A DNA stretch of 64,000 bases from Punctularia strigosozonata HHB-11173 SS5. Taxonomy: Eukaryota; Basidiomycota; Agaricomycetes; Corticiales; Punctulariaceae. Location of the stretch: assembly GCF_000264995.1 (NCBI RefSeq), contig NW_006767440.1, positions 463,430 to 527,429 of the forward strand, read 5' to 3'. The notes below the pieces were generated by a model. The model made no database searches. It saw nothing but the letters and a program-made list of their open reading frames with translations, and had not been told where the DNA came from. The position numbers and the translations under genes are program-made. This document shows positions 8,213-53,509 of this stretch, in pieces (within the stretch, counting starts at the first letter, position 1; the number at the start of each line of letters is the position of its first letter).

Positions 8213-8881
8213 TGCTTCGGGTGGTGACGACCATTCGGTGCTAGTCTGGGATGTAGAAGAGACATAGGGCTGTTCTCATGTCTTTGCCGGCGCTGCATTG
8301 GCAATGAACCGTGTCAACTCGACAAGCTTTATTCAGAAAAACAGCAGCCACGATAATATATTTCATACAACGAGGGTAGTGGCGATACGTAAGCAGCTTC
8401 GGAGCCGGGGAAAACCAATGGATACAATGTAGTGGGGATAATGCAGTCCGGAATCTACGGTCGACCGAGATATCGGCTCTTTGGGGCATTGTGGTTGGAG
8501 AGAAAGATGGGAGCGATTAAAGGATGCGCCGACGCACGTACGTAGGCGCGTCGGGCTGGCGGCAAATTCGACCGCCGATAGAGGAGTAAAGGACGAAGGG
8601 GGAGAGAGAGTTGGAACGAGTGATTAGGGCCCGAGCTCGGACGGGCCGGCTGGGGGGTCGGAGACGAGACGCGACGGGAAATGGATACAGTGAGCACTGA
8701 GTGTTGACGGATATCGAGTACGAAATCGAGCCGGGAGGGACCGCTCGGGGGTATTTGCGACAGAGAAAAAAAATTCGGAAAGGGGGAAGATCGGGATTGA
8801 ACCGGTGTGCTTTGTTGTGAGACAGCCGAGGGGTTTTTTTCTTTTTGCAGGCTGCAGGGCGGCTCGAAACCATTTTCGCCC
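8213..8881. other. Non-coding 3' flank of the PKA gene
   Basis: No gene seen. This stretch lies downstream of the PKA stop at 8882 and upstream of the copia relic, and probably includes the PKA 3' UTR. A T-rich tract follows at about 8831-8841. Confidence 0.35.
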
Positions 8882-10362: not shown

Positions 10363-10930
10363 GGTGGCGATTGGGGCACTGGGTGATTGATCCGACAAGA
10401 GGGGGTCGACGCAGCAGGACGTGGGGGTGCTACTGCTATGAAGTATGAAGGCGAATGAGCAGGAGGTATGCAGTGAACGTACGACGGATGACGCACCCGA
10501 AGTTCAGATAGAGGCGGACCCGGCGTTCAGATTAGGCCAAGCCAAAGACCGATGGTGGCGGGTTGGGTACTGGTGACTACGGGGCGCCGACGCAACTCTC
10601 GGGCGTGTCGGGAACGCGATAATGATGGATTTGCCACCGTAAGCAGAGCCCGAACGCGGTGCTGGACGGATGGGGGGAGAGCCGCAGTTGGCGGTCACGT
10701 CACTCCGAGGAGGGCAGCTTGAGCGCGAATAGTCCCGCCTGCGAGAGCACCTCTCCCGCGCGCTGCGGATGGCGACCAAGGCTGGAGTCGGGACGTAGTG
10801 GTCGAGGAGGAAGGAGGGCGGAAGGGAGAGGCGGGTGTGTGTGTGAGATCGCGCACGGGGAGGCGGGGCAGATATCCTCGGGCTCATGTGCATGGGAAGC
10901 TGCGGTCTGGCGCCTCTCCCGAAGAACGCT
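10363..10930. promoter_or_regulatory. PKA upstream region, cut by a transposon
   Basis: Sequence between the PKA start codon and the transposon target site. No gene is visible. The native upstream sequence continues on the far side of the element at 30848, so the original promoter is split by the insertion. Confidence 0.5.
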
Positions 10931-10937
10931 CGATCAT
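10931..10937. repeat. Target-site duplication, left copy (CGATCAT)
   Basis: CGATCAT abuts the outer end of the left terminal repeat and recurs exactly at 30841-30847, directly after the right terminal repeat. This defines both ends of the element and supports a single transposition event. Confidence 0.85.
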
Positions 10938-12695
10938 CACCTCAGCCACCCCTTTGGCAGACCCTAGTAAGGCGGAATCTCCCTGCGCGAAAGTCGTCCT
11001 TTGGAGGCCTCGCCGGGGCGGTACGTTCCAATTTGTTGGTACTTCCTGTCCTACCCGCTGTCCAGGCCATCCGCCGCTGGGATGTCCCGCTTTGTGCCCG
11101 GGTACATACCATGCTACCAGTGCTACGGGATCGTGAACCCACTACCTGATGCGCACTCAGCTTCGAGATTAGGATATGTAACGATGGGCATGCGCGGCAG
11201 GCGTATGCACATTCATAAACGGTAACACACGCGCTGCACGATATCCTATTTACCGCCCGAGAGGTCTTAGAGTCATACTAGCACCCGCTGCTGGGACGCT
11301 AGCACCAGGTAGGTAGGTCATATTGTGGCGCACATGGCTTGCCTCCGCTCCATCCGCCGTCCCCCCTCCAATTTCTTCAAAAAACTGATGGATATAACCT
11401 GAATCTATGAGTCAATCATCGCCAGCCGCCGTGGAGGCGAAATATGTGCATATGCAAAGCATACCGGCCAGTCAATCGCCACGCAACGCTCGCCGGCATA
11501 GCAGGGGGCGTCCAGCCCTGGCTTTGCATTCTCGGTCCGCAACCGCTTGCTGGTACGTACCGTTCCTGGGATCTCCTTTGAAATCGTGCAGGGGTCCTTC
11601 ATGAGATCTGATTTTTGCTTGCTAGGAGTGTGCCTTCGACCCGTGGGTCTTACCCATATTCGACGTTTCGGGATGTTAGGTCATCCTCGATCGTATGGGC
11701 CGTCGTCCCATGCACTGTTGTACGTACCCNNNNNNNNNNNNNNNNNNNNNNNNNNNNNNNNNNNNNNNNNNNNNNNNNNNNNNNNNNNNNNNNNNNNNNN
11801 NNNNNNNNNNNNNNNNNNNNNNNNNNNNNNNNNNNNNNNNNNNNNNNNNNNNNNNNNNNNNNNNNNNNNNNNNNNNNNNNNNNNNNNNNNNNNNNNNNNN
11901 NNNNNNNNNNNNNNNNNNNNNNNNNNNNNNNNNNNNNNNNNNNNNNNNNNNNNNNNNNNNNNNNNNNNNNNNNNNNNNNNNNNNNNNNNNNNNNNNNNNN
12001 NNNNNNNNNNNNNNNNNNNNNNNNNNNNNNNNNNNNNNNNNNNNNNNNNNNNNNNNNNNNNNNNNNNNNNNNNNNNNNNNNNNNNNNNNNNNNNNNNNNN
12101 NNNNNNNNNNNNNNNNNNNNNNNNNNNNNNNNNNNNNNNNNNNNNNNNNNNNNNNNNNNNNNNNNNNNNNNNNNNNNNNNNNNNNNNNNNNNNNNNNNNN
12201 NNNNNNNNNNNNNNNNNNNNNNNNNNNNNNNNNNNNNNNNNNNNNNNNNNNNCACCCTCTGAAAGAACACGGTGGTATCTCCCATGATCGTCGAGAAGCT
12301 TCGTTGGGACTTACCATGGTGGCTGCCGCCTTTTGGTAGTTGCCACGGCCCTTGTGGGACTTACCATGGATGATCTCGGTGCGTTGGTATATACCCTACC
12401 TCCCCATCGAGCATTGGGACTTACCGGCGGTATGACAGTTCCATTTGGAACATACCAGCGGTGTCATTGGCACGATGGGACGTGCCAGTGCTGTCGACTC
12501 CAGAATGGGATGTACCAGCGTGGGCTTCTCTGCTGCGTGGTACATTCTTCACTCTTGCCCATCGCACCATCAAGTACCTGCGCGCCAGGGGAACAGTGGG
12601 ACGTACCAGCACTTCGTGCGCTGCGCTGGGGCATAACTGATTGCCCAATGGTACGTCCCTGGCATCTTAAATCGTACCACGGGATGACATTACTA
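10938..12695 (+). repeat. Left terminal inverted repeat
   Basis: Inverted partner of 28842-30840, about 1.24 kb of known sequence plus a 523-base N run. Similarity to the partner fades just inside 12695. Short motifs of the form GGGACNTACC recur along it, for example near 11080, 11550, 12306, 12357, 12417, 12507 and 12597. Such subterminal motif clusters are typical of transposase-binding regions. Compared with the right copy, several single-base length differences cluster at 11540-11720, next to the gap, and may be sequence errors. Confidence 0.9.
11730..12252. other. Assembly gap (523 N) inside the left terminal repeat
   Basis: In the right repeat the sequence between the matching flanks (CAGAGGGTG and GGGTACGTACC) is only about 40 bp (29285-29324). 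The real missing sequence is therefore probably tens of bases, not 523. Confidence 0.7.
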
Positions 12696-12813
12696 CGGCA
12701 GGCTGCTAAGAGAGTTTTCCGCTTCGTCAGTAGGTTACTCAAATGCGCCCATGGCGTTTTACATTGCATGTATTGCTCGTATTCAACAGACGTATTGTAC
12801 AATGTGCAATCTA

Positions 12814-15800
12814 CTAGTTATGACGTTGCCGCTTTGGCGTTTGAGGCATGTCCTCCTCGGAATGACTAGGGGATGCGAGCCAAAGCGATTCCTTTGAACT
12901 TTGCGCCCGCGATGGTGTTGTAATGGGGGACAAATGCAATGCAGGGAGGCGATTTGGAAACGGACGTCCATTGGGAGTTTTTGGCGACCGAAGAACCTGC
13001 GCCATACGTGTGGCCCTTGGCGTAACAGAACCTGGTACGGATAGTAACCCAAGCCGATCTGCAGGAGAAATCTGAGAGATAATTGAGGAGAATAGCAAAT
13101 GTACGAACCCAGAAAGCGTGTTTTGGTCGGCGATGCCCCCAGGTCGATAGTGCAATCCTCTAGATCGTCCCCGCTGTCAGAGCTATCCTCAGGCTCCATA
13201 CAGATGATCTCGCCAGCTGCGTCAGTATAATCATCAGGGTCTTCGTCATCGGAATCCTCTGTGCACAACGTATGATTTGTCTGCCCTGGCAGTGGCAGCT
13301 GGTCTTCGGTGAACTCCGTGTACTCATTCCGCATGCCGGCAATCATCTCGTCGCTGGAAGGACCCCACGATTCAGGTTGTGGTATGGCTGAGGGTATGTC
13401 ACCGGCTCGGCGACGCCAGATAACCGCTAGTTGCAGAAGCTGTTCACGACGGCCCTGAAGTTGATGAGCCATCCCCGGACTGAGATCTGACGAATCATCA
13501 AGGTCATTAGTGCTCTCTTAGACTAGAGGGCCCGATCTTTACCTGCGACCGCACGGGCTCTCTCGACCGCTGCCCATTCCGCAAGAAGCCAGCTCTGCAT
13601 GGTTCCGCGCTCCTTGTAAATGCGTGCCAGCTCTTCTCGGCAGCGGTCACGCTCGAGCATGGCACGTATCCCGTTTCGATACCGTTTGTCACTGAGCCAA
13701 ACGGGACAGGTCGCGCCATGATCGTCGTCATCCAGAAGTCCTGTGTCTTGCCAGATGGGGTCGTCCACGTCTAGCTTCCAGAAGGTAGTCACATCAATTG
13801 TGGCTGGCGTGACGGCTCCTGCCGGTGCTTGGCCCTTTTTTATCAAAGCGTCCATCTCGCGACACAGCGCGTTGTATCGCTGTACGGTATCCCGAATGCC
13901 GGTTTCACGTCTTTGAACGGCTGTCGCCGTATGGCCATGTAGTTTGCGTTCTGCATGAAAAGTAAGCTCGTAGTTCACCGTTGACGATCAAGATTACCTG
14001 ATGAACGCCCGGACCGCAACTGCTCGATCCTCGACAATTCGAATTTGCGTTGTCGCAATTTCTCTCGGATCCGCGTCTTGAGAGCAAGCGCATTTGCTTT
14101 TCGTCCAAGAAAGAGATCTTTCCTCAGCGCTTGAAGATTGCGAAGAGCTGGTTCATCCAGGAAGCCTTCAAACTTGGCGAGCTTCTTTCGCGCGTTCATT
14201 CGATCGTCTTCCAACAAAGTCTGGTAGTCTAATGCCTGTAAAGGATCGGCATTGAGGACGCTTGCATTACCATCCGCGATGGCGCGGTCGAGTTCGCGAA
14301 TGCGCTCATCGAGGGCGATGATGACTTCAACGTACTTCGTGCCCGCGTTCTTTGATTGCCCTACAAGGAGTGAGAATGGAAGTTATCCACATTGACTACG
14401 GTACGCACGTGGGATAGGTTTGGTCTGAACAGCACGCTGGTTGGCCCATTCCGCGCGAAGTGATTCTTCGTCAATACCACTCTCGCGAATCTCTTTCTCG
14501 GCTTCAGATAATCGCATGCGACACATTTCGTGCCGCCTCGATAACCACACCGCAAGATTGAGCAAGTGCTTCGATATCAGATGAAGGAGCTGGCAATCAA
14601 GGAGATATCTCCGTTGGTAGTACTGAAAATTTGTATCAGCGAGTGTAAGAGATTTGCGAGAAGAATATTACCCCGCTTCCCCTCAGTACTGAGACCAGGT
14701 GATTGAGGGCGCTCCATAGCCGCTCGCACCCTTCACCATCGGAGAGACCAAAGCCACTGCACTTTCGCGGGTGATAGCAACACTGGCACGGCCACTGGTG
14801 CCCGTAGGCATGAAGGACTGATATCGCGAAGGTTATGCGATCACGGATATCGCACAAGAACCCCCATTTGAAGACGCTCCGATGAATTTGACAGCCAATG
14901 TCGTATAGGATGCCAGCACGCCATGAAACTGGTATATGTTGAAATAATTTGTTGATCAGCGCAAGAGCGTAGTGCTGGCGTTCCCCCGCGCTGGTCATAT
15001 TAGCCACCCACAGAGTACAATCGTGTCGACAGAGCAACGCCACAAGGCCAGTGTCGTCAAAGAAGGTGGTGCTCGCTTTTTCGCGTCGTTCGTCGGCAGC
15101 TTTGAAAGAAGCTTCGCAACCATCAAGAACCGAATTTGGGACCTGAAGAGGTCCCTCGCATTTGTCGGGCTCCGTTGTCGCGTCCTTGCCAGATGTTGGG
15201 TCCGGGGCTGCCCTTTTCTTCCCCTTTCCTTTGCCGTCATTCTGCGATGAAGCAGGCTTGCTTCGACACTCTGCTACGAAGTCTTCCATGGCTTTCACTT
15301 CAGCATCGGGCATAAAAAAGGTGTCCGGATGAACCTTCATTGGATCGCGCGGGCCAGAGCGCCGTTTTTGACTGAAACAGGCATCGATGCATACGATCAC
15401 ATCAAATCTGGAGAACATTATCATTATTATTCATAACTGTCTTGCGATACACACTTACTCCATAGATTCGTCGCGGCTGCTAACACCCGCAAAGCATAGA
15501 GGACATCGCGACCGTAAATAAAGACTTGGTCTTGCTTCCTCTGCATGGGATCCGGGAAGGGGGGAAGACGGCTGTTGCTGATGCTCCGACGCTGAAGTCG
15601 GCGCATCGCAGCTGGGATTCTGCGGCGGAGAGTCGGCCGAAGTTTCAACGCCTGGACATACGGAGGGCGGAAATGGTGCAGACACTGATCGGACAGCGTT
15701 GATAGCTTCATCAACCTTCGCTGTAACGCAGTTTGTTAGGTGCATGTACCAGTTGAGCGTGTTGCCCAAACGGCGTCGCACCGAGTACTAGTAGAGTATA

Positions 15801-16657
15801 GCAATCAGTAACACCGAGCATACGTTACGTCTGGACATACCCTTGTGCGAAGCTTGAACTGTCTGGCCCCGAGGAAGGTCTCTAGAGTAGATGCCCATGC
15901 CGTGATGTTCGGTGCCACCCTCAAGAATAACGTCGCCACAAGTTCCATCATATTGATGTCAAATGCAACAGAGGGAGCTTGGGGCGCACAGGGAAAGAAT
16001 CCGCGGGAAACTAAAAAACTTGCTGCCGACGTGCAGCTACACACACGAACGTCCATGTTTTCGAGACCTGACAAAACGTAAGATAAAGGATAGATTGATC
16101 AGAGAACACTTACGATCAACATAGACGATCAAAACTTTCAGTGTCTTTGAGTTTGCACCATAGCCACAGGTGCACGGAGTTTCAGAGACCTGATCACAGG
16201 TCCGGTTACGGGCGCACGCCAAGTGGTTCATGTAGGGCGTCAATAGTTCCGGTATAACGATGGTGCACCAACGTTCCCATTGATTTGCCTTCTTCCGTGC
16301 GTATCGAATCTTGTGGTAGTCCTTCCCAGGTTCTGGTGGATCATGATAGCGAAGAGGTGACGAGCAACGGTGCGACGAAGGAGAGCCGAAGGAGTGGCCT
16401 GAGGGCGTCGATGGGGTGTTGTGCACGTTCGCAATGACTTCTTCGAGGCTCTCTCTTGTAACCAAGGGTCTTTGTCTCCCATCCGGATGTTGCGCAAGCG
16501 TCTTCCCATCTGGAAACAGGATTACGGGCAAAGGCTGGCCAACTCTCTGAGCTGGCAACGAACCACGGCCGGACAGAGAAGGACCATGGTCTAACGGTGT
16601 GGCTGAGGATTTCTTGTCTGAAGACCGCAGATGGTGACGGGGAATGCGAAATGACAT
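12814..16657 (-). CDS. KDZ-superfamily (Kyakuja-Dileera-Zisupton) transposase
   Basis: Predicted DDE-type transposase of roughly 1,150-1,200 residues in nine exons, all with GT...AG introns of about 45-60 nt. The N-terminal part has cysteine clusters of the CxC type: TPCTCGYG, then VCSCTSAASFLVSRGFFPCAP, then RCPLC. The core shows FDVIVCIDACFSQKRR, TGLVALLCRHDCTLWVANM, ILYDIGCQIHRSVFKWGF, HAYGHQWPCQCCYHPRK and LSDGEGCERLWSALNH. The aspartates of CIDAC and DIGCQ and the glutamate of EGCERLW fit the expected acidic triad. Downstream are the usual C-terminal segments (KLDVDDPIWQDTGL, GIRAMLERDRC, LLQLAVIWRRRAG) and a basic end, PKRQRHN. Start at 16657 (MSFRIPRHH). No internal stop remains after splicing, so the gene appears intact and may be active. 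Confidence 0.9.
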
Positions 16658-17731
16658 GGTTTGATGTAAAGACAATGCAAGCCGTCGGCGACAGACAAGC
16701 AGGTGACAACGTGTACTTTCATCCCTGGGATGAATATTGTATCACCAACACCGCATTCTCATCATTGACTTCCATGACCTTTCGCGCTCTGATACTGCAA
16801 GTCACCCAGTTCAGCATTGCATAACCATCCCAGCGCGAACCACCCAGCTTCACAAGCAATTTAGAGCGCACATCCAACGACACCCAACTCACGCTGGCAG
16901 CATCGCATATCGTCATTTCTTGGCACGCCAATGGACCGCACTCGTAGCTCCCGAAAGAGTTCACGGGTCCGGAGAGCAGGATTACAGGCACCGAGAGGCC
17001 AAATCTGAATCGGTAAGAATTAACGTAAAGACAACGGAGGACCTTGGTCTAATGGTGTTGTTAGGGATGCTTGGTTTGACTGAGGACCACAGATGGCGAT
17101 GGTGCATGTAGGAAGGCGTCGCCATACGCGAAGGCGAGGACAACAACAATCTCATCACCAACTCCCTCTTTTTCCATCTCATACTGTTGTACATCCTCGA
17201 ATGTTGGTACCGCAATACAACCTCACTCACCCCCAAAACGACTGACCCGTTGGAAATGAGCCGTTTCGAAGGCTCGTGAGGAGTTAAGTGATTTGACAAT
17301 GGCAGAACTGGTCACTTTCAGCGGCGCAACAACTGTCTTTCGATGTCAACACTCCATTGAGCATATATAGAGGCTTTAATATTCAGAAACATCACGCTAA
17401 GGTTGGGCTCGATTCAGTCTGCGCAACACAAACGCCAGGCCATGCATGCTGCTGTTCTGCGCGAGCGCCTTGGAAGGTGGTAAGATAATCCGTTACGAAT
17501 AAGGATAACTATCAATACAATCTGACTCCGCGTTGATCTTATTGCAATAAATACCGAGTGATGAATCTCCGCGAAAGAAAAGAACGTGCTTGTAGTGGGG
17601 TCTATAATTACATATGAGGACTGCTGAATATGGTAAGAGTGGGAAGGAGGTGATTGTTTTCGGCCTGAATTGTGTCACCTCTCGTAACCAAAATGAGATA
17701 TACAAACGCAACCAGAAAGCACCCTTTGAAT
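16658..17731. other. Transposase upstream region with a decayed copy of transposase exon 1
   Basis: This stretch contains the transposase promoter. At about 16955-17110 the minus strand reads MHHRHLWSSVKPSIPNNTI, which resembles the first exon of the transposase (PRHHLRSSDKKSSATPLDHG), and the nucleotides around it are visibly similar. It is a diverged partial duplication with no intact reading frame. The rest holds nothing recognisable. Confidence 0.5.
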
Positions 17732-18392
17732 TTACGCTCCATCAGTGGGAACCGACTGAGCACGCACGCGCAAATAATTTGGGAACGGGGGCGTGTTTGG
17801 GCGAGACATCATTCGAGTCCGAGACTCGTCCATAAGAGGCACGCGCAATGGCGTGACGTGCTGGGGGGGATCAAACTGGATACCCCAAACAGGGCCAACA
17901 AACAAGGAGTCGTGGAGCATATGGATAGCAGCGCGCAAGACGCGATTATCTGCGGTGATACGTAAGCGCAGCACCGTGTTCAAGACGGAATAAAACCTAC
18001 CGATGGAATAGGCATAGCTTATAAACCACCAGCACTCCATCGTGTCTTCTCCCAAGATTTTGCCAGTAATCTCGACGTCTCGCTCGCGGCTCAAGTCAAT
18101 GTCCTGTGAGTAATAATCAGTTGAGGTACGGGTACAGTTTTGGCTTGGCGTTACTCACGTCAGGTACATACACCTCGATGACACCACCGTCGACAGTCCG
18201 TAGCATCACGGACGATCCTTTGTCCTGATTATCACAAATGTAGAATCAGAATTTAATGGTGCATCATGTAGAGCAGCTGCGTACCTCTATGATCTGACCT
18301 GGGACGCGAGCGCTACGACCTCTATAGCGTGGGAAACGGGCGGAATCGATCCTAGGGGCAACACCGCACCAGGGCAGAAATGGAACAGACAT
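17732..18392 (-). CDS. Replication protein A small subunit-like protein (Rpa3/RPA14)
   Basis: Four exons (18392-18285, 18224-18159, 18103-18001, 17949-17732) encode 164 residues. The protein reads as a small OB-fold subunit of replication protein A: PRIDSARFPRYRGRSARV (strand 1 region), VMLRTVDGGVIEVYVP, DVEITGKILGEDTM, and a C-terminal helix IDNRVLRAAIHMLHDSLF. The order, spacing and the EITGK / I-x-HMLHD pattern match Rpa3 proteins as I know them. RPA binds single-stranded DNA in replication and repair, and the small subunit stabilises the trimer. The C-terminal extension of about 50 residues is unusual for a family normally near 110-125. All splice sites are canonical and frames join cleanly. 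It lies inside the transposon, so it is either captured cargo or a host gene carried along. Identification is by motif only. Confidence 0.68.
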
Positions 18393-19680
18393 ATTCAAGA
18401 TCAGGCAAAAGGGACGATGCAAAGGGAAAGACAGAAAGCAGGGCGAGGCGCTGATCGCCGAGCCAGAAATCCTTGAGTATATATACGCGGATTTGGTGAC
18501 GGGCACGTGCTATTCTTTATCGGTTGCGGTGCGCCTTTGTACGTCCCACTCCGGCCTTTGGTACATCCCATCCAACCTTTGGGACGTCCCAAGGCTTGGC
18601 GAAGCCACTCTTAGTGAAGAAGGTCACCACACTACCGCGCTCTCATGTCACTCATGTAATTACCAATTCCAATTTCAAAGCGCCACAAGAATCACCCAAA
18701 TCCGCACAGGCTTCGCTCCCTAGCTGCCTATTTTCTCAGTCAACGTTACCTGAAGATTACGCTCATTACGCCGCCAGGGCTTGCCCGTCCTCACGTAACT
18801 CTGCATACTTCATGCAGAGCTCTCAAGCGTGACAGAAAACCCCCCTCATCCCACTGCGGTCTGTGGTATGTCCACGTACGATACATTCCCCGCTCCGCGA
18901 TGGTTCCATTTCAAGAAGGCCGACTTATTCGCCGTTTTCTGAACAGAATTTCTTCCCCATAATCGGTGCAGCCGGTGCCCGCTATCATGTCTCGTGTAGC
19001 CCAGAACTCTTGACGTGCCTGAGCCTGGTTACGTCCCAGCGGTATGCGGGGATCACCCAAATGGGCGCTTGACATTTTTTTTTGCGTGTGGTGTCACTTC
19101 ATCTCCTTCTCAATACGTCAGGGCACATTCCAGGCGTTCTCGGAGCTTCCGTACCGACCCCGTCATTGACGCACTTCTGCAAAGCCCCGAAAGATGGTCC
19201 ATGGGCCGCAATTTGGGTCGTAAGAAGCCGCTGGTCCTTCTTCAACGGCGACGGCATTTTGATGGCGGAATTAGTTTCCATGGGCAACACTGTGGAGTGA
19301 TCCGAATACAACGCCACAGCACACGCCACAAATCATGTTCGATCGGCAGAGAAGTTGTCGGCACCTTGCATGCGACGATCCACGGCAGACAGCACGCAAG
19401 CGAGAACATATGATGGTGGCGGCGGATATAGGTGATGTCAATCCTGTCTCCGACTGTGCGTGGAGGTGGAGTTTGCGAGGCATGATAACCAGCGTTACAA
19501 GTCGACTTGCAACCTGCGAGTTACATCGTGATGTGCAAAGCCGCCGTAGTCATGAGATTGTAACAGTATTAACTAGTAAGACAACGGTGGAGCTGTGAAG
19601 AGACATTTGTCGCCGATTATAGAGAGTGCTTGGAGACACCGTGCTTTGACACTTATCTGGTTGTGACCATACACCATTAA
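18393..19680. promoter_or_regulatory. Rpa3-like gene upstream region with transposon-type motifs
   Basis: No gene was recognised. Within 150-210 bp upstream of the Rpa3-like ATG is a run of three motifs, GTACGTCCC, GGTACATCCC and GGGACGTCCC (18539-18591), matching the motif that fills the terminal repeats. Looser copies lie near 18865 and 19025. The rest is unassigned. Confidence 0.45.
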
Positions 19681-20720
19681 GCTGGGTGTGGCACCAGCAG
19701 CACAAAGGCGGATGCTGCAGGGCGGGCAGCCAAGAAGGCCCCAGTGCGGGTGAGTTTTACGTCGACGCTGGGATTCTAGGTCGGGCACTTACCTTCTGTC
19801 AACGTCGTGCTACGCTGGGATGTATCCCAGTGTCCATAAGCAACCCAGAACTGGCAGAGGAGACGGTGGGAGAGTACGAGGACGATGAAGGTATGCAGTC
19901 GTACCATATCTGTAGTCAAAGAGGTGGTCGGGTGTCAATAGTACGTATCCTTCAAGTTCAAATGATAATCTTGACCGGGGTGTACGAGCCTTTGGATGTT
20001 ACATGGACCGTGTAGAGCGTCAGGAGGTGCGGAGGTCCAACATGAGCATACACAATTGCGACTGTGATAGGTGAAGTACCACCAGCCCAGAGGCGGATGT
20101 TGTTTCGCTAGCAGTCAAGCCGGCTCGAGTGCCGTTGAGTTCGATGTCAATGCTGGCTCCTTAGGTCGGGCTCTGGCCGTGAGTTGATGCAGCACCGTGT
20201 CAGTAAGCATCCACAAGTGACCCAGGAGACGAAGAGGAGCTCAGAGACGGCACGGGAGTACGAGGACGAGGGAGCTATGTAAGGAGAAGTATGGGTAGCC
20301 GGACCATTGATATCTATGTAGGCAAAGAAGTGGCCGGGTTTCGATAGTACGAATCCTCCAAATAATAATCTTGGCCTTGGTGTACGAGCCTTTGCATGTT
20401 ACATGGACCATATAAAGTGTCAGGAGGCGCGGAGGTCTAACATGAGCATATATGGTGGCGATCAAAAACTATCAAGGTGTGTAGGGCTCCATTAGTACAT
20501 TGGTACTAAGCTGTTACCGGGAGAGCAGTGAGGACGGTTCAAGTGCCGTTGAGTGTAACATCGACACTGGATTTGGAGGTCAGGCACTCATTGTCAGTCG
20601 CAGTAATGCTACGCCGGGCTGCATTGAAGTGACCATAGGCTAACCGAGGAGATGCGGAGGTGCCAGGACATGGCACAAGAGTACGGGAGTGGAAGGAATG
20701 GCTAATCGACGCATGATCTT
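19681..20720 (+). repeat. Three diverged tandem copies of a ~390-bp unit
   Basis: Copies start near 19685, 20075 and about 20490 (the last incomplete). Shared landmarks include GTACGAGCCTTTG then ATGTTACATGGACC (copies 1 and 2), GGAGTACGAGGACGA-like blocks, and GTCGGGCACT / GTCAGGCACTC with CTACGCTGGG / CTACGCCGGG (copies 1 and 3). Substitutions and small indels are frequent. No coding potential was recognised. Copy 2 matches copy 1 over at least 200 bp. Confidence 0.65.
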
Positions 20721-21192
20721 ATCTACCCCGCAAGCAATCGAGAACGGATAGTACACGCCGTTCATATAAGTTCCAGCCTTGGTATGCATCTGGATCTATT
20801 CCTTGTAAACCCGATTTGGACAACATCGGTGATCTCAAGTAACGAAGACACTGATAGCCTGAGTGAGGAGAGATACACAATGTGAGCGGGCACGGCGAGA
20901 TGAATCGGAAACTCGTGCTCGTCAACGACAAATGTTCACCCTTCAAGTTGGCATCGAGTGATGGTGGAAACACTCTCTCTGCTTTATCGTGCTCGCGATG
21001 ACATGTTACTAGGCAATAATGTCGGGTAGATTGCGATCACCTCGCAAGTCTTCAGCGCTGCATATGTGCGCGAGCCATCCATACTAATCACACGTAGGCT
21101 GCAAGTAGCCTCATTCCGTTATTCCAGCACGTTTGTGGCATGAAATTCAACCCTATGACAGAACTTCGATAAGACTCTGCGGCGCGGAATAT
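20721..21192. other. Unassigned stretch inside the transposon
   Basis: Lies between the tandem repeats and the stop of the 314-residue gene. A short minus-strand frame ending near 20719 (RRVLSVLDCLRGR) could be a terminal exon, but nothing joins to it convincingly. Confidence 0.25.
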
Positions 21193-22335
21193 CTACGGCT
21201 CCGTCCCCCGACTACTATGAATCGTGAAGAAATTACGAATAGTTTCCCCAGGACCTGGCACAGTGCGAACAAGTCCCAGGTGCGGTTCTCCTTCTCCTTC
21301 GCCATTCCGATCCCAAATCATGTCCAACGTGATGGGAATGATGCTGAAGTTATCGGTCACTAAAGGCACCAATGCCTCGTTTGGGTCGATGCTGCGTCCG
21401 CCCCAGCGGAAGTACAAGTTTGCAAAACCGGATTTCAATATCTGTACATTAGAGCTGTGAGTTCACGCACAACGGAGCAAAAATGCAGTGTACATACAGC
21501 TTCCGACTTTCTATCATACTCGTCAGTGGTCAGAAACGCCAATCCCATCACGTGCTGAAGGTAGAGGCGGCAATTCACACCGCATGTTCGTCGCAGACGA
21601 TGGAAGTTAGTCATATGGTAGTTGAGGATACTATCCTGAACAAATTCCTGGACTGTCTCCGGCCGTAACGCATACGACAGAAGCTCTTGTGCCTACAAAC
21701 TCTCAGCCTCAACTCACGACAAACGTAACAGATCCCGTACCTCGGACTTTCGATTCAACCATGAGCGGAACCAAGGGTTTCCGTCGGTGACGCCCCAAAG
21801 CGCCCCAGACTGGTTCATCTCCACCTCCGGAATTCGCCACGGGAGCGTCAACTCGCGATGAACAAAAATATGCCTTGGGTGCATGACACCGGAGCCGGGC
21901 GCGCTCTCGTTGATCTTGCCTGGCTCAAACCGCTCGTACGCTCCTATGAACTCGCGTACGGCAGACTAAGGCAATTTGGTTACTTGAGCTTTCGATGTAA
22001 GGAATTCATCTCACCGGAGAATTAATAGGGTCCAGCAACAAATTCCCGAGCACGAAGATCCATTTCAGGTACGCTGCCGGTGCTGTCCCGAGCAGCATTC
22101 TATCATAGTAGTAACCGGACAGGTGTTGCAGCACCAAGGGACTATAGTTCCATAGATTCCCGTCCCTATCCCCTTCCCTCAGCATACCAACCAAAACGCG
22201 TGCCTTGCACCGCTGTCAGCATGGTTGGTAGCTGAAGACTCAGCGCCCTGGCCTCACCGTGGTATACTTGTCGCGGAAAATCATTGCGTCAGTGATGTCC
22301 ACAGCGTTGATATCGTCGGTGCAGGTGGTGGCCAT
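21193..22335 (-). CDS. Transposon-borne protein of unknown function, 314 residues
   Basis: Five exons (22335-22258, 22212-22015, 21965-21741, 21692-21498, 21441-21193) total 945 nt and stay open across all four introns (45-58 nt, GT...AG), which strongly supports a real gene. The product starts MATTCTDDINAVDITDAM and ends in IRNFFTIHSSRGTEP. It is rich in aromatic residues and has no signal peptide or membrane segment. Recognisable stretches are LVLQHLSGYYYDRMLLGT, LTLPWRIPEVEMNQSGALWG and FANLYFRWGGRSIDPNEA. I do not recognise a family. A GTAAGT site near 22440 may belong to an upstream non-coding exon. It points away from the large plus-strand gene, the two being separated by a motif-bearing tandem repeat. 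Confidence 0.7.
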
Positions 22336-22579
22336 TATTATCAAAGTGAGAGGCAGTCGAGGGAGAGAAAGCACAATAGAGCAGCGACGATGAGGTATAT
22401 CCCCAAGTTTTTGCTCTTCGGTGTGAGTTGAGCCACTTACGTTCTTGTGTGGCTAGATCGTGACATTGCAAATAGTTCCATCCGTCGATTCCATGTCCCC
22501 GCGCAAGTTTGTGAAGCTTCCAGGGCCGTGCTCTTGGCGTGATTAATGAGGCGGGCGTTGGGCATACGATCACATCGGA

Positions 22580-23445
22580 TTTCTCAAATCACCGCCGGCG
22601 GTCTTACAGTTGGTACGTACCATCCCGGTTGGACCTTTTGTCCCGCATGTCTAATTCTGTGCGCCTCTAGTCATCCAACCCACATGGATTGTGGCTACCG
22701 GAGTTAACATATCCGCTCCGTCAAGGTCCGGTCCGCCGATACTCAAACGATTGCGCTCGCAACCTGGAATCGTGTCGGCGAAGGCAACCAATTGTGCCCT
22801 CCAAGATTTATTGCCTTAACACCGGTGTTTCGCAATTGGTGCGTTCTGTTCCGTTTGCAGCCTTGTGTTGCATGTCTAACAATACGCGCGACTTCAGTCG
22901 CAAAGTCCACACGGAGTGTTGTTAACAGGGTGAACATATCGGCAGAGTCAACAACCGGCACACCGGTACTCGAATGATCGCGCTTGCAACCTGCAATTGC
23001 GTAGGCAAAGTCGACCAAGTCGCCCCTCTTGCATTTTTTGCATTACCACCGGCGGTTTTACAGCTGGTGCGTGTCGTTCCATTTCCGCCCTTGCGCCGCA
23101 TGGCTAACAGTGTGTGCGCTTCTAGTCACTCAATCCATTCGGAATGTTGTTGCCGGGGCTGACATATCGGCTAAGTTAAGGTCCGGTCCGCCGATACACG
23201 AACAATCGTGCTGGAAACCTGCAATTACGTTGGAGAGTCGATCATTCTCGGACTTCTCCACCATCGCCGACGATTTCGCCGCTTGGTATGTACCATCTCA
23301 ATTGCACCTCGGTCCCTCATGTCTGACGCAGAGTGTGCTATTCGCCGTTCGACTCGCACCCGATTTCATCGACTGCTTGGACTTGGATGCAGTCAAAGCT
23401 CGATCCGCCGATGCCAAACAGTCGCCCTGACGGGTCGCAACCTTA
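22580..23445 (+). repeat. Four diverged tandem copies of a ~215-bp unit, each with a GGTACGTACC-like motif
   Basis: Units begin near 22580, 22800, 23010 and 23240. Shared blocks are ACCGCCGGCGGTTTTACAG (intact in units 1 and 3), GCATGTCTAAC, GTCCGGTCCGCCGATAC, and GCAACCTGCAATTGCGT-like sequence. Each unit has one GGTRCGT/GGTATGTACC element at its centre: 22613, 22838, 23067 and 23285. The array occupies the space between two divergently transcribed transposon genes, where shared regulation or transposase binding would be plausible. Confidence 0.7.
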
Positions 23446-23668
23446 TAGATCCGACCAACTCTGCGCTTTCCCACTCATCACTGGGTTGCATTGTTCTGTC
23501 TCAGTCACCACTCGGAATCTCGAACTTCAACCTCTTCTGCACGCTTTCAAATGCCTCAAACACGTTCTGGGGTGCGGGTAAGATGTTTGCTACATTGAGT
23601 GATATGTTTGGAATTGACATTTTCGAAAGAAGGCCCAGAATACAGTATTGTCTTTACCGCCTCCGGAG

Positions 23669-25997
23669 ATGAAGAAGAAGCGGGTATGCAGTATGTTATT
23701 TTCTGCGTATTCACAGCTAATGCTAGCTACAGAAGAAGAAAACGGCTCCACTTGTTAGTTCGGCACAGTCAGCGTGTGATGCAGGAGCGCCGGTAAGTGT
23801 TCTCAGCTCAACACCGTCGACAATAATGCTCAATATTCTCTTCTTTCAGCTTGCTCAATCTGAAGTTGAAGCTCGGGCGGCATCGCTGACCGAAGGAACG
23901 GTTGAGTTGCCAAAGGTGATTCTTTTGTGCATATCATATTCTATTTTGCTCACATTCGTAACCCCGTCTCATCAGGAAGCCCCAAAACCGACGCGAAATC
24001 AGAGGACGGCTAAAGTTGCAAAAACCGGCAAGAAGGGCAAGGTGAGATTCTTGAGCGCTTGTTATATATCAGGACAAAGGCTGAGTGTAAACTAGACGAA
24101 GATTGTACCGGCCAACGAAACGGCAAGCATCGACCATGACGCAGCTGACGGGTTGGTAAACATGGCGACATCGGATGCGCCTGTATCACCGGTCACTTCG
24201 TCGTTATCCTCGGTGCATAGCAGGATTGGCTCTCCCGCATTGGTCAACACTGTCGTGCCCCCGATGTCAATCGCCGAAACTCCCTCCGCCGTGGCGCAGC
24301 TGCCAAATGCGACAAACAGCATGGCGCACCGTTCGACATCTCTAGAAAGTCCACAGGGCTCTGTTGTGATACCCTCAGCTGCTGCCTCTGTCGCCAATCA
24401 CGAGGGGAATTCATCTGAATGTTTGCCCCCGGATGCTTCTTCATCGGCTGGGGAAACGTCGCATGCACAGGATGCATTAACTTCGTTTATGGCATCGATG
24501 ATCTCGGCGGAGGCTAGCGTACAAAAGGAGGTATGTGCCCGTTCTACCGGCTCTTCAATCTACAAAACTAACCGAACCCTTTTGCCTAGCGTACCGCAGC
24601 GGCAGAATTATACCGTTTTCCCGCGATTGCGCCTTGGAAATCTACGCTGCTAGCCCCACCAATCCAGACCACGCAAGGTGCAGGACTGGGTACAACCGAG
24701 CCTAGATCCACGAGCAAGGAAGCCGCCGTTGCATCTTATACTTTCCCCGATCCCTTCCCATTGACAACCGGTGCTCACGTTGTGCACAGCGCTCAGCCGG
24801 TAAGCCTTTGCGGGCATGTTGCTCGACGTGGTCGCTAACAACATGGTCTCCAGCCCGCTCCCCAGAGTTCGATTATCCCGAGTGTATCGCATGGCATCCC
24901 GACCGATCCAGACGCCAACCAAAACGGTCGGGACGGGGAAGATGACGCACAACATCTTGACTGCTCTCCAGCGCAGGCGCCTGATTGCGCCACCTTTTTG
25001 GAGCTCGACAAAGATGAGGACTGGGAAGACCTCGATTCTGACAACGTCGAGGAGGACGGCTCTGGTCCTTCCATCGGTGACGATCCACTCAGCCCAGACT
25101 CTCCAAACCGTCCCGGGGCAATCAGCGCGGAGGCCAAAGCAAAACTCGATAATTTTATCAAGTACGCGGATAAGTTCAAATTACAGCTCGCGAAGGAGAC
25201 GGGCAAGTCACTGGATGTCATTGCGAAGTGGATTGGCCGGCCGCCGCTAATATCGTCTCGCGCGGAGAACCGGTGGCAGGTATGGCAAGCGTGGTATGCC
25301 GCACATCATCCACAGATCAAGGCTACCGATGGTTCAGCCGTAGGTACGTATTTTGGTTCAGCCCACGTTTTCTCTTTTTCATTTCATTTGATGCAGCGGA
25401 GGACTCGGAGACGTTTGCGCGTCGCAAGAGGAGCGCATACTATGCACGTCTTGCTGGTCACAAGACTTGGCAAGAGAAGAAGGCCGCCATGCAAGACTGC
25501 TACGACTGGTGGCATACGAAACGCCAGGAATTCTTGGACAATCTTGTCGGGACGGGGAAAACTAGCAACTTAGTCACGGTTGCCGCTCGTCAGGTTGGCG
25601 CTATGGTGGGTTCTGTTGTGTTCGCGTTTCCTGCCCCGCTAATTCCTCGTCTTGGATCAGTCGGAGCATTGGCATTCACAGAGCGGACTCCATATCTTCG
25701 GCATCATAATTGACACCGCCGGCGGGAATTACATCATGACGGGAGGTTCCCCGCTCTGGCCGCGGCTCAAGGCAAGGTTTCCCAAGAATCTGCACAAGTA
25801 TATAATGGAATGCAGAGCCCTCGCTACGTATGTGCCGTTACCGTTCTGGAAAATGTTTCTTAAAAACAGTTTAGAATCTTGGAACAAAATGAGGATGGCT
25901 CACCTGCTGTCTCCGACGAACAACTACAAGGTCTCATACCTATGGACAAATCAGACGGTCCTGAAGATGATGTTCCTGAATTGGTCCTCCCGGACGA

Positions 25998-26034
<37 letters not shown>

Positions 26035-28530
26035 AATGACGACGACGACGACGACGAGACCAACGAGCTCTCCGCCGATGGCGTGCTTGACGAGAAGAAT
26101 TCCCGTGACGGCTGCGATAAGATATTGAGGCGTATCATATTGGCGCTGTGCAGTGAGTATCGCTGGCTCATTTACCGTGACTGCGCCATTTAATCCGCCG
26201 CTAGATGATATCGGTATACGCACCTCGAAGTTCAAATGGGGCACGATGTTGGAGTATCTCGTTACGAACGGGATCACATTATACAACTGGTGCCCCGAAG
26301 CCACTATGACGGAGATCAAAATCAAAGGACGGAAAGACCGAATCGCTTTCAACTTCCGCACAGGAAATAGTCTGAACATCAAGGCGATGGTCGAGAGGAA
26401 CAATGGCCCAGGGAGGTTGGTCATCAAGAGATGGGATGAAGGTTTGCGCCTACGTCATGCTATGTTTATGATGTTGCTAACGCACCATCCAGAAGTGATG
26501 AAGAAGCAGTGGCGCGAACGTGGGGATGTCCCTATTCTGCTTGCCTATATTCCTGCAAGCGGCTGGGGAGGCAAAGAAGATATCATCGACACTCCCTATG
26601 GACGTCAAATTGTTCTGTATCGCGCCCAGGCTACGCAGGCGTACTGCAATGCCGTCATCGAAGAAAGCAAACCTGCGCCTCCTGTGCCTGTTCGCGTCAA
26701 AGGTCGAGGCAAACAGAAAGCAGCTGACCAAGGCGCTCATGCGACGAAGACGAAACGCCAACGGTCTCAACCCGTACATCCCTCGCCGGTCGATACGCCC
26801 ACTTCTACTCTCAATACCGATCATTTAGCACGACCTTCTGGGTCCACGGAGCCCAAAGACGCGCGCAGGGGCCATATTTTGGGGACTATTACGACACACC
26901 ATCACTACGACAATCCGCTTCTCAAAGGACGAAAGAGGACAAAGGATCAGCTGTACATCGAATTGGACAGCAGTGACGAGGAGTCTGCGTGCTCTCCCAT
27001 CATTTCAGCAGTTGCAGCAAGGCCCACCGACCACCAGTCGGTGCAGCCGCCCCCCCAGGTACTCACGGGTGGATGGGTGCGTGTCTTGGGTATGTTCGTA
27101 TCGCATACTCATTGTTTGACCTATTCAGAATGGCGCCGACGTCAATGAAAGCAACGGCAATTATCTTAGCGGACATGGGCTACAGTACAATGAGGTGCGT
27201 TCATGATGCAATGCACTCGAATCCCATCTGACCTGTTGTCATTCAGCAAACCCTCTATCCCCCCCACGTCGGGTTCAATGACAACCCTATCTTTGGCATG
27301 CACATCAACGACCCGGCTCCAATAGCAGCACAGGTGCGCCACTGATCACTGCTCGTTTCATTGCATTTACGCATTCTGTCGCTGTCTCAGGCTGGCGCCG
27401 ACTTCATCGCCAACGCTCAATACGGGTTATATATCACACCACCCGATCATGCTGGCGATGGCTACGCCACACATTGGAATGGATTGGTGCAGGACCAGAC
27501 GGCGGCCCCGACTTACATTGATCCCTTGGCCACCGGCTCTCTTCCAACAATTCCCGAACCTCCGGGTGAGTGGTCAGAGTTTAACGCAGAAATGTCGGCT
27601 CACGTTCGCCTAGACACGGAATCAGGGAATGATCGCAACCCTAAACGCATTGCGCAGAGCTATCCTGGGGATGTACCGTCATCGACGCCAGTCATACAGG
27701 CCAAACGATTCAACGGCAACCCTGGCGATGTTGTGCACGCGTCGCAACCTCCCATTCGGACCATCAAAGGACCTCGGCCTCTACCCTTACCAAGAAGCAA
27801 TCAGGTGATGCGTTATGGGAACATCCCTGAAGAGACACGTCACAATGTGCCCCCCTTTCCCGCAGAGCTCCAGCCTTTCATGTATCCTGCTCAACCGACC
27901 AACTATCAATCGCATCCTCATCCTCCACGTCTCCATTGTGAGCTGCCACAAATACCACACGATGGCTCACAGGGACTCACGGTCCAACGTTGCGCTGACA
28001 CTGTGCATGGGCAAGCCTCATCGACACGCAAGCCGCTACCACTACCATCGGCTGTTGATTGTCTAACGGCACCTATCCAGGTCTGCCAGGAGCCGTCAGC
28101 GATGAGTCTCTGGCCTCCTCAGCATGGAAGCAACTCCGATAGCATGCCGAGGGATCAAGCGTCAATCAGCTTCCCTCCAGGCCGCTCCCCTTTATACGTC
28201 TCACCCAACCCGAACACCGCGTATTCGGGCCGTCCCCCCGCCCCGTCTATTCAGCAATCCTTCGCTTCCGCAAGACTAGTACGTGGAGTTGCGAACGATC
28301 AGCTCAATGACGCTCTTCAGATACCCGCACAGGCAAGCAATCTTACGAGTCTGCGTCAAGGACAGCCAGTCTTGTCCAATCGTCCTCAACCGCGTCCCAT
28401 CAAGAGGTCTCGGAGTGATTACGAGGGCCCAGAGGTGGACATGGATGCGCAGATCCGAGCTGAAGGCACGAAGCGTGCCGCTTACTTGCGCGAACAGGAT
28501 GCTAAACGGGCACGCACACAAGAATCATAG
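23669..28530 (+). CDS. Large transposon-borne protein of unknown function (~1,370 residues)
   Basis: About 15 exons join in frame through GT...AG introns. It begins MKKKRKKKTAPLVSSAQ, a strongly basic start likely to act as a nuclear localisation signal, with a second basic tract at KTGKKGK. The first exons are tiny, and their introns are all phase 0. A Ser/Ala/Pro-rich region follows, then acidic tracts, a probable folded part (AKAKLDNFIKYADKFKLQL, AENRWQVWQAWYAAHHPQ, DCYDWWHTKRQEFLDNL, HIFGIIIDTAGGNYIMTGGS), an (NG)n-Asp-rich spacer near 26000-26060, and WGTMLEYLVTNGITLYNWC. The last exon of roughly 380 residues is disordered and Pro-rich. I recall similar large, poorly characterised proteins in many Agaricomycetes, often next to transposons, but cannot name a family. 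Candidate roles are DNA binding or partnering the transposase. Confidence 0.72.
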
Positions 28531-28841
28531 ACTATTCATAACATATTAGCGGATAATGTCTTAGCGGAGTTATAATGCTATTGTCGAGAAACGCGCTAGT
28601 CGTTTTTCACCTGCCCGCAGCGAGCCTGAGTTATGCAAAGAGAAGAGATGGATACACGAACATGTTTGACATGCAACTTACAATGCAACGCAGTGTTCGC
28701 CTTTAACTGGATGCTCTACTGATATGCCTGATTGCCACGGCCCGTGCTTGTGTCTCCTTCGATACTTCGGTCAACTCCTCGCCGGGGGAGGGGGAGGGGG
28801 TACGAGATCACCACGCGAAGGATCCTCCCAGCGGCCGGCAT
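28531..28841. other. Spacer between the large transposon gene and the right terminal repeat
   Basis: Nothing recognisable except a G-rich run (GGGGGAGGGGGAGGGGG) at 28785-28801. Confidence 0.3.
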
Positions 28842-30840
28842 TAGTAGTGTCGTCCCGTGGTACGATTTAAGATGCCAGGGACGTACCATTGGGCAATCAG
28901 TTATGCCCCAGCGCAGCGCACGAAGTGCTGGTACGTCCCACTGTTCCCCTGGCGCGCAGGTACTTGATGGTGCGATGGGCAAGAGTGAAGAATGTACCAC
29001 GCAGCAGAGAAGCCCACGCTGGTACATCCCATTCTGGAGTCGACAGCACTGGCACGTCCCATCGTGCCAATGACACCGCTGGTATGTTCCAAATGGAACT
29101 GTCATACCGCCGGTAAGTCCCAATGCTCGATGGGGAGGTAGGGTATATACCAACGCACCGAGATCATCCATGGTAAGTCCCACAAGGGCCGTGGCAACTA
29201 CCAAAAGGCGGCAGCCACCATGGTAAGTCCCAACGAAGCTTCTCGACGATCATGGGAGATACCACCGTGTTCTTTCAGAGGGTGGTGCATCATTGGAATC
29301 ACGCCATGATCGTGCCTCCATGTCGGGTACGTACCACAGTGCATGGGACGACGGCCATACGATCGAGGATGACCTAACATCCCCGAACGTCGATATGGGT
29401 AAGACCCACGGTCGAGGCACACTCCTAGCAAGCAAAATCAGATCTCATGAAGGACCCCTGCACGATTTCAAAGGAGATCCCAGGAACGGTACGTACCAGC
29501 AGCGGTTGCGGACCGAGAATGCAAGCCAGGGCTGGACGCCCCCTGCTATGCCGGCGAGCGTTGCGTGGCGATTGACTGGCCGGTATGCTTTGCATATGCA
29601 CATATTTCGCCTCCACGGCGGCTGGCGATGNNNNNNNNNNNNNNNNNNNNNNNNNNNNNNNNNNNNNNNNNNNNNNNNNNNNNNNNNNNNNNNNNNNNNN
29701 NNNNNNNNNNNNNNNNNNNNNNNNNNNNNNNNNNNNNNNNNNNNNNNNNNNNNNNNNNNNNNNNNNNNNNNNNNNNNNNNNNNNNNNNNNNNNNNNNNNN
29801 NNNNNNNNNNNNNNNNNNNNNNNNNNNNNNNNNNNNNNNNNNNNNNNNNNNNNNNNNNNNNNNNNNNNNNNNNNNNNNNNNNNNNNNNNNNNNNNNNNNN
29901 NNNNNNNNNNNNNNNNNNNNNNNNNNNNNNNNNNNNNNNNNNNNNNNNNNNNNNNNNNNNNNNNNNNNNNNNNNNNNNNNNNNNNNNNNNNNNNNNNNNN
30001 NNNNNNNNNNNNNNNNNNNNNNNNNNNNNNNNNNNNNNNNNNNNNNNNNNNNNNNNNNNNNNNNNNNNNNNNNNNNNNNNNNNNNNNNNNNNNNNNNNNN
30101 NNNNNNNNNNNNNNNNNNNNNNNNNNNNNNNNNNNNNNNNNNNNNNNNNNNNNNNNNNNNNNNNNNNNNNNNNNNNNNNNNNNNNNNNNNNNNNNNNNNN
30201 NNNNNNNNNNNNNNNNNNNNNNNNNNNNNNNNNNNNNNNNNNNNNNNNNNNNNNNNNNNNNNNNNNNNNNNNNNNNNNNNNNNNNNNNNNNNNNNNNNNN
30301 NNNNNNNNNNNNNNNNNNNNNNNNNNNNNNNNNNNNNNNNCCTCCACGGCGGCTGGCGATGATTGACTCATAGATTCAGGTTATATCCATCAGTTTTTTG
30401 AAGAAATTGGAGGGGGGACGGCGGATGGAGCGGAGGCAAGCCATGTGCGCCACAATATGACCTACCTACCTGGTGCTAGCGTCCCAGCAGCGGGTGCTAG
30501 TATGACTCTAAGACCTCTCGGGCGGTAAATAGGATATCGTGCAGCGCGTGTGTTACCGTTTATGAATGTGCATACGCCTGCCGCGCATGCCCATCGTTAC
30601 ATATCCTAATCTCGAAGCTGAGTGCGCATCAGGTAGTGGGTTCACGATCCCGTAGCACTGGTAGCATGGTATGTACCCGGGCACAAAGCGGGACATCCCA
30701 GCGGCGGATGGCCTGGACAGCGGGTAGGACAGGAAGTACCAACAAATTGGAACGTACCGCCCCGGCGAGGCCTCCAAAGGACGACTTTCGCGCAGGGAGA
30801 TTCCGCCTTACTAGGGTCTGCCAAAGGGGTGGCTGAGGTG
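28842..30840 (-). repeat. Right terminal inverted repeat
   Basis: Reverse complement of 10938-12695, about 1.29 kb of known sequence plus a 710-base N run. The outer 43 bases match the left end exactly. It carries the same series of GGTACGTCCC / GGTAAGTCCC motifs on the plus strand, for example near 28885, 28931, 29021, 29051, 29112, 29171 and 29222. Confidence 0.9.
29631..30340. other. Assembly gap (710 N), probably spurious
   Basis: The 21 bases before the gap (29610-29630) are identical to the 21 after it (30341-30361), and the left terminal repeat is continuous across the equivalent point near 11410-11440. The two contigs most likely overlap here with no missing sequence. Confidence 0.75.
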
Positions 30841-30847
30841 CGATCAT
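30841..30847. repeat. Target-site duplication, right copy (CGATCAT)
   Basis: Identical to 10931-10937 and directly adjacent to the outer end of the right terminal repeat. Confidence 0.85.
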
Positions 30848-53441: not shown

Positions 53442-53509
53442 CTTACGATACAGCTAAATTCAATACGATAGACCACTCGACGGTCTATCGTAATGAATTT
53501 AGCTGTAAG
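53442..53509. repeat. Near-perfect palindrome upstream of SSF1
   Basis: Arms CAGCTAAATTCAATACGATA.../...TATCGTAATGAATTTAGCTG around a 7-base loop, with about 26 paired bases and one small interruption. It lies about 110 bp upstream of the SSF1 start. It could be a tiny foldback element or a hairpin-forming regulatory site. Confidence 0.75.

What the first reader, a model, noticed from the sequence alone, without database searches (positions are those of the whole stretch)
10931..30847. A complete ~20-kb KDZ transposon with ~2-kb terminal repeats and a 7-bp target duplication
Both ends begin CACCTCAGCCACCCC in opposite orientation, are flanked by CGATCAT on each side, and enclose an apparently intact KDZ transposase plus three other multi-exon genes. 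Long terminal repeats plus cargo make this much larger than a minimal DNA transposon. I see no TET/JBP gene, the partner known for some fungal KDZ elements, so the cargo set may be new.
Basis: partly seen in the sequence, partly recalled or inferred. Interest (0 to 1): 0.9.

Follow-up and report, generated by a model that had tools for sequence, protein, structure and literature searches.

The report
Mushroom-type KDZ transposon carrying RPA3-like gene

Summary
The boundaries are real: inverted ends lie exactly at 10938 and 30840, each flanked by CGATCAT. An open nine-exon KDZ transposase (1147 aa) and three other multi-exon genes lie between. "~20 kb with ~2-kb repeats" counts scaffold N-gaps; each arm's gap is bridged by the other arm, giving TIRs of about 1.26 kb and an element of about 18.7 kb.

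One cargo gene encodes a 164-aa protein matching Pfam Rep_fac-A_3 (26.0 bits, cut-off 23.5), best PDB match 4gnx_A, recalled as Ustilago RPA14. The other two (311, 1365 aa) match nothing. No TET/JBP was detected by Pfam; diverged types are not excluded.

A near-palindrome, TGGGACGTACCA, clusters in both TIRs and in spacers upstream of the cargo genes, and is absent from gene bodies.

The 7-bp TSD and CA..TG ends match Kyakuja; long TIRs do not match the two Laccaria Kyakuja families described as TIR-less (PMC12730594). My searches listed no paper describing an RPA gene in a KDZ element, but Iyer 2014 was not readable. No empty site, second copy or fungal relative could be tested. Verdict: new variant of a known kind.

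The parts
10931..10937 (.). left target-site duplication CGATCAT
10938..12695 (+). left TIR arm; contains a 523-N gap (11730-12252) that corresponds to 40 bp in the right arm; real length about 1.26 kb
12814..16657 (-). KDZ transposase gene, 9 exons (16657-16114, 16067-15841, 15787-15459, 15407-14672, 14622-14409, 14360-13998, 13950-13543, 13486-13109, 13058-12814), 1147 aa, all introns GT-AG, 46-56 nt
   Evidence: model; Pfam KDZ 8.4e-62 and CxC1 1.1e-08
17732..18392 (-). RPA3-like (replication factor A small subunit) gene, 4 exons (18392-18285, 18224-18159, 18103-18001, 17949-17732), 164 aa
   Evidence: model; Pfam Rep_fac-A_3 26.0 bits (cut-off 23.5); PDB 4gnx_A E 2.9e-06
18537..18591 (.). 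three copies of the near-palindromic motif at 21-22 bp spacing, followed by a TATATATA box, upstream of the RPA3-like start codon
21193..22335 (-). cargo gene C, 5 exons (22335-22258, 22203-22015, 21965-21741, 21692-21498, 21441-21193), 311 aa, no match
   Evidence: model; no Pfam match; only chance-level PDB matches
22600..23500 (.). degenerate array of about 227-bp units (three recognisable, a fourth weak) with motif sites at 22611 and 23284, between gene C and the 1365-aa gene
23669..28530 (+). cargo gene of 15 exons, 1365 aa, no match
   Evidence: model; no Pfam match; no PDB match
28842..30840 (-). right TIR arm; contains a 710-N gap (29631-30340) whose flanks overlap by 21 bp
30841..30847 (.). 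right target-site duplication CGATCAT

Best explanation
A complete, autonomous-looking cut-and-paste DNA transposon of the KDZ superfamily, Kyakuja-like in its 7-bp TSD and CA..TG ends, inserted about 575 bp upstream of the presumed start codon of a protein-kinase gene in a fungus, most likely an agaricomycete. SHOWN by sequence: the boundaries, the TSD, near-identical ~1.26-kb TIRs, an open spliced transposase, an RPA3-like gene, two unmatched genes, and a shared 12-bp motif. INFERRED: the transposase binds the motif arrays in the TIRs, pairs the ends, cuts, and inserts at a staggered target, leaving 7 bp. Motif sites upstream of the cargo genes would let a motif-binding element protein also control cargo expression. 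The RPA3-like protein most likely acts on, or joins the host RPA at, single-stranded DNA made during excision, gap repair or replication. The 1365-aa protein is the likeliest further DNA-binding or accessory factor.
For: TIR ends and TSD coincide exactly. KDZ and CxC1 domains are both above Pfam cut-offs and the spliced frame is open over 9 exons. The arms are identical over about the outer 585 bp and over the first 432 bp of the inner block; the ten differences between lie in the ~210 bp beside the left N-gap, seven of them single-base indels. RPA3-like: Pfam above its cut-off over almost the whole profile (5-99 of 105), best PDB match at 2.9e-06. Motif: 11 sites in the left TIR (0.10 expected), 12 in the right (0.14), 6 in interior spacers (0.33), 0 in 10.5 kb of gene bodies (0.54), 5 in 44 kb of flanks (2.23). 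Kyakuja families have 7-bp TSDs and CA..TG ends (PMC12730594).
Against: No second copy or empty site could be examined, so mobility is not shown. Identical arms may reflect assembly collapse or gene conversion. The two Laccaria Kyakuja families are described as lacking TIRs. The motif was chosen by eye from the TIR and the 18.5-kb spacer, so the counts are partly circular. No motif site lies in the spacer directly upstream of the transposase gene. Gene models are by eye, without transcripts. The unaligned AlphaFold model of the catalytic exon was unusable (pLDDT 43.7). No homolog from any fungus was seen, so conservation of the cargo is untested.
Confidence: 0.82

Rival explanations
1. The same element, but the RPA3-like gene and the other cargo are passive passengers captured from the host, with no role in transposition.
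For: KDZ elements are said to carry accessory genes often in fungi (PMC12477816 passages). Only this one element is available; the viral and prokaryotic collections scanned gave no relative of the transposase and no match to the terminus, and cargo proteins were not scanned there.
Against: All three cargo frames are open over several introns, and cargo spacers share the TIR motif while gene bodies have none.
Confidence: 0.35
2. A composite or nested structure: a smaller KDZ element (transposase plus TIRs) into which another element or host segment with the RPA3-like and unmatched genes was inserted.
For: There are internal degenerate repeats (19906-20450, 22600-23500).
Against: The window self-comparison shows no further inverted pair inside the element. 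The two outermost genes both run outward to within about 0.3 kb of the TIRs, and the motif links the interior to the ends.
Confidence: 0.12
3. An assembly artefact: two unrelated TIR-bearing fragments joined across the N-gaps.
For: Both arms contain scaffold gaps with wrongly sized N runs, as expected at repeats.
Against: The interior between the gaps is gap-free, and both outer ends run continuously into flanks that share the 7-bp TSD.
Confidence: 0.06

Closest known systems
Kyakuja DNA transposons of Agaricomycetes (e.g. Kyakuja-1_LB, -2_LB; PMC12730594)
   Same: KDZ transposase, 7-bp TSD, CA..TG termini, extra cargo gene
   Different: Those two families are described as having no TIRs and carry an AG-type TET/JBP; here TIRs are ~1.26 kb, no TET/JBP is detected by Pfam, and an RPA3-like gene is present
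KDZ1-KDZ3 of Cryptococcus neoformans (PMC12810828)
   Same: KDZ plus CxC1 transposase, TIRs, shown to insert into a reporter gene
   Different: About 9-11 kb with 139-241-bp TIRs; 8-bp TSDs for KDZ1 and 4-8 bp for KDZ2/3; the term RPA does not occur in that paper's main text
Giant KDZ elements of Ectocarpus (to 30.3 kb) and Chlamydomonas (31.7 kb) (PMC12477816)
   Same: Large KDZ elements; many giant families in Ectocarpus carry additional genes, so size alone is not new
   Different: Algal; cargo not described as RPA-like in the passages read
Helitrons encoding RPA-like proteins (PMC4683698)
   Same: A transposon that carries a relative of an RPA subunit
   Different: Rolling-circle elements with an RPA homolog; here the small-subunit RPA3 family, in a TIR element with a KDZ transposase

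Membership tests
KDZ superfamily | PF18758 KDZ transposase domain | tested here: met
   209.1 bits, cut-off 26.6
KDZ superfamily | CxC cysteine cluster before the catalytic domain | tested here: met
   PF18802 CxC1 35.6 bits, cut-off 26.9, residues 152-250; CxC2 17.1 bits, below its cut-off of 27
KDZ superfamily | RNase H fold with acidic triad | tested here: inconclusive
   Pfam match covers 1-213 of 217; candidate motifs IDACF, YDIGC, DGEGCER found, but their catalytic role is recalled; unaligned fold has pLDDT 43.7
Kyakuja | 7-bp TSD | tested here: met
   definition from PMC12730594
Kyakuja | CA..TG termini | tested here: met
   CACC..GGTG
Kyakuja | no TIRs, as stated for the two L. bicolor families | tested here: not met
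   ~1.26-kb TIRs
Kyakuja | transposase in the Kyakuja branch of the tree | not testable with these tools
   no reference KDZ sequences held; scans of viral contigs and genome contigs found no relatives
TET/JBP-positive element | TET/JBP dioxygenase gene | tested here: not met
   no Pfam match in four models or in pieces of at least 40 aa in 18393-21195; diverged PE type not excluded, spacers 16658-17731 and 22336-23668 not scanned
Zisupton / Dileera | 8-bp TSD | tested here: not met
   8 bp does not match, 7 does
RPA3 (replication factor A protein 3) | PF08661 domain | tested here: met
   26.0 bits, cut-off 23.5; profile 5-99 of 105
RPA3 (replication factor A protein 3) | assembly with RPA32 and RPA70 or DNA binding | not testable with these tools
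   needs biochemistry

The most novel reading that the evidence does not exclude
A DDE-type transposon that supplies its own RPA small subunit: the RPA3-like protein replaces the host subunit or competes with it, to protect excision gaps or to tie transposition to replication. One near-palindromic operator in the TIRs and cargo spacers would couple end recognition to expression of the cargo genes.
Probability: 0.25. Interest if true: 0.72.

Novelty: new variant of a known kind. Interest (0 to 1): 0.47.

Why it matters
Several fungal KDZ elements are known for carrying a DNA-demethylation-type enzyme. A KDZ element that instead carries a relative of an RPA subunit would suggest that these transposons also interfere with the host's single-stranded-DNA handling, and it gives a small protein that can be tested. 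The shared motif offers a concrete candidate binding site for a superfamily whose end recognition I met nothing about in the passages read.

Tried and rejected
Own-genome search for other copies: no genome held. Close relatives of the transposase's main exon by the search for related loci: none confirmed in viral contigs (1 pattern match) or genome contigs, which is bacterial and archaeal (23 pattern matches). Terminal 26 bp as an exact pattern in viral contigs: 0 matches. No fungal genome collection was available, so these negatives say little. PDB search with the catalytic exon: best E 0.031 to an unrelated protein, taken as chance. The unaligned structure of that exon was too poor to use, so no fold search was run. 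The first version of the KDZ model and of the 1365-aa model was frame-shifted and was corrected at GT-AG sites; gene C failed on an anchor and was completed. A raw frame overlapping one exon of the 1365-aa gene gave DUF2612 at E 0.2, 12.1 bits against a cut-off of 23.5, taken as chance; the spliced protein gave nothing. I considered Starship and Plavaka: no such domain appeared in the Pfam scans of the four products, and Plavaka TSDs are 2-3 bp (PMC12730594). C-to-T (RIP-like) decay: no strong sign; CpG observed/expected is 1.02 in the element, 1.12 in the flanks and 0.91 in the TIR, TpA/ApT 0.65, 0.66 and 0.79.

Full report
OBSERVATION. In the window the sequence CACCTCAGCCACCCC is present once on each strand, at 10938 and ending at 30840, and the outer 500 bp of the two arms are identical. 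The two ends are bounded by CGATCAT. Only the 7-bp length matches among lengths 1-12, and inverted homology stops at the boundary (3 of 20 bases alike outside); random flank positions give such a match in 37 of 400,000 draws. The reported coordinates 10931-30847 are therefore exact.

SIZE CORRECTION. The window has 1,233 N in two runs, both inside the TIRs: 11730-12252 and 29631-30340. The sequence on the two sides of the right gap overlaps by 21 bp, and the left arm runs straight through the same place. The left gap corresponds to 40 bp in the right arm. If the arms are colinear, each TIR is about 1.26 kb and the element is about 18.7 kb (non-N bases 18,670). The arms are identical over about the outer 585 bp and the first 432 bp of the inner block. 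Ten differences lie in the last ~210 bp before the left gap: seven single-base indels, mostly in short base runs, and three substitutions. They look like sequencing error at a contig end, which is an inference.

GENES. (a) Transposase, 16657-12814 minus, 9 exons, introns 46-56 nt, all GT-AG, 1147 aa; Pfam KDZ 8.4e-62 and CxC1 1.1e-08. (b) 18392-17732 minus, 4 exons, 164 aa: Pfam Rep_fac-A_3, 26.0 bits against a cut-off of 23.5, covering 5-99 of 105 profile positions; DUF5818 scores 25.4, below its cut-off of 27. The best of 9 PDB sequences listed is 4gnx_A at 2.9e-06 over residues 12-75; the listing calls it a putative uncharacterized protein, and that it is the Ustilago maydis RPA14 subunit is recalled. 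The other eight are at 0.26 or worse; one of them, at 0.86, is the telomerase Teb3 subunit. (c) 22335-21193 minus, 5 exons, 311 aa: no Pfam match, chance-level PDB matches (0.94 and 1.2). (d) 23669-28530 plus, 15 exons, 1365 aa: no Pfam or PDB match. The two outermost genes run outward toward the TIRs, so the TIRs are unlikely to be their promoters.

TET/JBP. No such domain was found by Pfam in the four products or in stop-free pieces of at least 40 aa from all six frames of the largest unmodelled stretch, 18393-21195. The stretches 16658-17731 and 22336-23668 were not scanned that way. Kojima (PMC12730594; parts 1-5 of 7 of the text read, and a term search) reports PE-type TETs in Agaricales whose relationship was indicated by HHpred and by AlphaFold structures, so genes c and d are not cleared of this.

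MOTIF. A near-palindrome, TGGGACGTACCA, at up to two mismatches, occurs at 11 distinct sites in the left TIR (0.10 expected from 200 Markov shuffles), 12 in the right (0.14), 6 in interior spacers of 5,636 bp (0.33; highest shuffle 4), 0 in 10,510 bp of gene bodies (0.54) and 5 in 44,083 bp of flanks (2.23; highest of 40 shuffles 5). Three of the spacer sites form a 21-22-bp-spaced array followed by TATATATA upstream of the RPA3-like start codon. Others are at 19027, 22611 and 23284; the last two lie in a degenerate ~227-bp array between genes c and d. I picked the motif by eye from the TIR and the 18.5-kb spacer, so these numbers describe and do not test. No site lies in the spacer directly upstream of the transposase gene.

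HOST AND SITE. The element lies 575 bp upstream of an ATG at 10362, taken by eye as the start of a gene whose main exon is a protein kinase (Pfam Pkinase 1.1e-64); that this is a cAMP-dependent-type kinase is my reading of the sequence. Of 28 long frames in the window, 10 were scanned; two neighbours match DUF6699 and Pkinase_fungal. An agaricomycete host is an inference from these, from the short introns and from the element type.

KNOWN ELEMENTS. Kyakuja families from Laccaria have 7-bp TSDs and CA..TG ends, are said to have no TIRs, and carry a TET/JBP (PMC12730594). Cryptococcus KDZ1-3 are about 9-11 kb with 139-241-bp TIRs, 8-bp TSDs for KDZ1 and 4-8 bp for KDZ2/3, and CxC1 domains (PMC12810828, passages). 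In Pleurotus, intact KDZ elements are preceded by CxC2 (PMC7641404, passages), unlike here. KDZ elements reach 30.3 kb in Ectocarpus and 31.7 kb in Chlamydomonas, and are said to carry accessory genes often in fungi (PMC12477816, passages). Marasmius KDZ and Plavaka elements have TIR motifs, shown in a supplement I did not see (PMC8290104, passages). Zisupton elements of Pristionchus have TIRs and multi-exon genes for proteins of up to about 1400 aa (PMC9297572, passages). RPA-like genes are known in Helitrons (PMC4683698, passages).

PRIOR REPORTS. Searches joining KDZ-family names with RPA, OB-fold or Rep_fac-A_3 listed 15 of 31 papers, 5 of 5, 15 of 25 and 25 of 377; a search on transposons with RPA3 and OB-fold listed 4 of 4. 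By the term counts one listed paper holds both 'KDZ' and 'replication protein A', once each: PMC5204125, on primase of Clostridium difficile, to judge by its title not about KDZ transposons. No listed paper appears to describe an RPA gene in a KDZ element. Iyer et al. 2014, the source of the KDZ name, is not held, so it may already mention such a gene.

MECHANISM. Shown: structure, TSD, open transposase, RPA3-like domain. Inferred from DDE transposons in general: end synapsis, double-strand cutting and a 7-bp staggered insertion. Proposed and untested: motif binding by an element protein, and a role of the RPA3-like protein at single-stranded DNA. Recent insertion is suggested by near-identical arms but not proven.

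VERDICT. A real and complete-looking KDZ transposon. The superfamily, large size and presence of cargo are known; the combination of ~1.26-kb TIRs, a 7-bp TSD, no detected TET and an RPA3-like gene is what appears new.

Noticed in passing
11730-12252 and 29631-30340: Scaffold N-gaps whose sizes look wrong: about 40 bp and about -21 bp by comparison of the TIR arms.
   Followed up: yes
7067-8275 (-): Copia-type reverse transcriptase ORF (Pfam RVT_2, 1.7e-50) close to the kinase gene.
   Followed up: no
16977-17108: A degenerate copy (91 of 134 columns alike) of the 5' end of the KDZ gene just upstream of it.
   Followed up: partly
19906-20050 and 20310-20450: Direct repeat, 83% identical, in the gene-poor spacer of the element; no Pfam match in pieces of at least 40 aa there.
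   Followed up: partly
31817-31931: 55-bp tandem repeat, 2.1 copies, in the right flank.
   Followed up: no
53449-53507: About 60-bp near-perfect palindrome (90% in the self-comparison).
   Followed up: no
10362-10938: The insertion lies about 575 bp upstream of the presumed start codon of a protein-kinase gene, so it may separate the gene from its promoter.
   Followed up: partly
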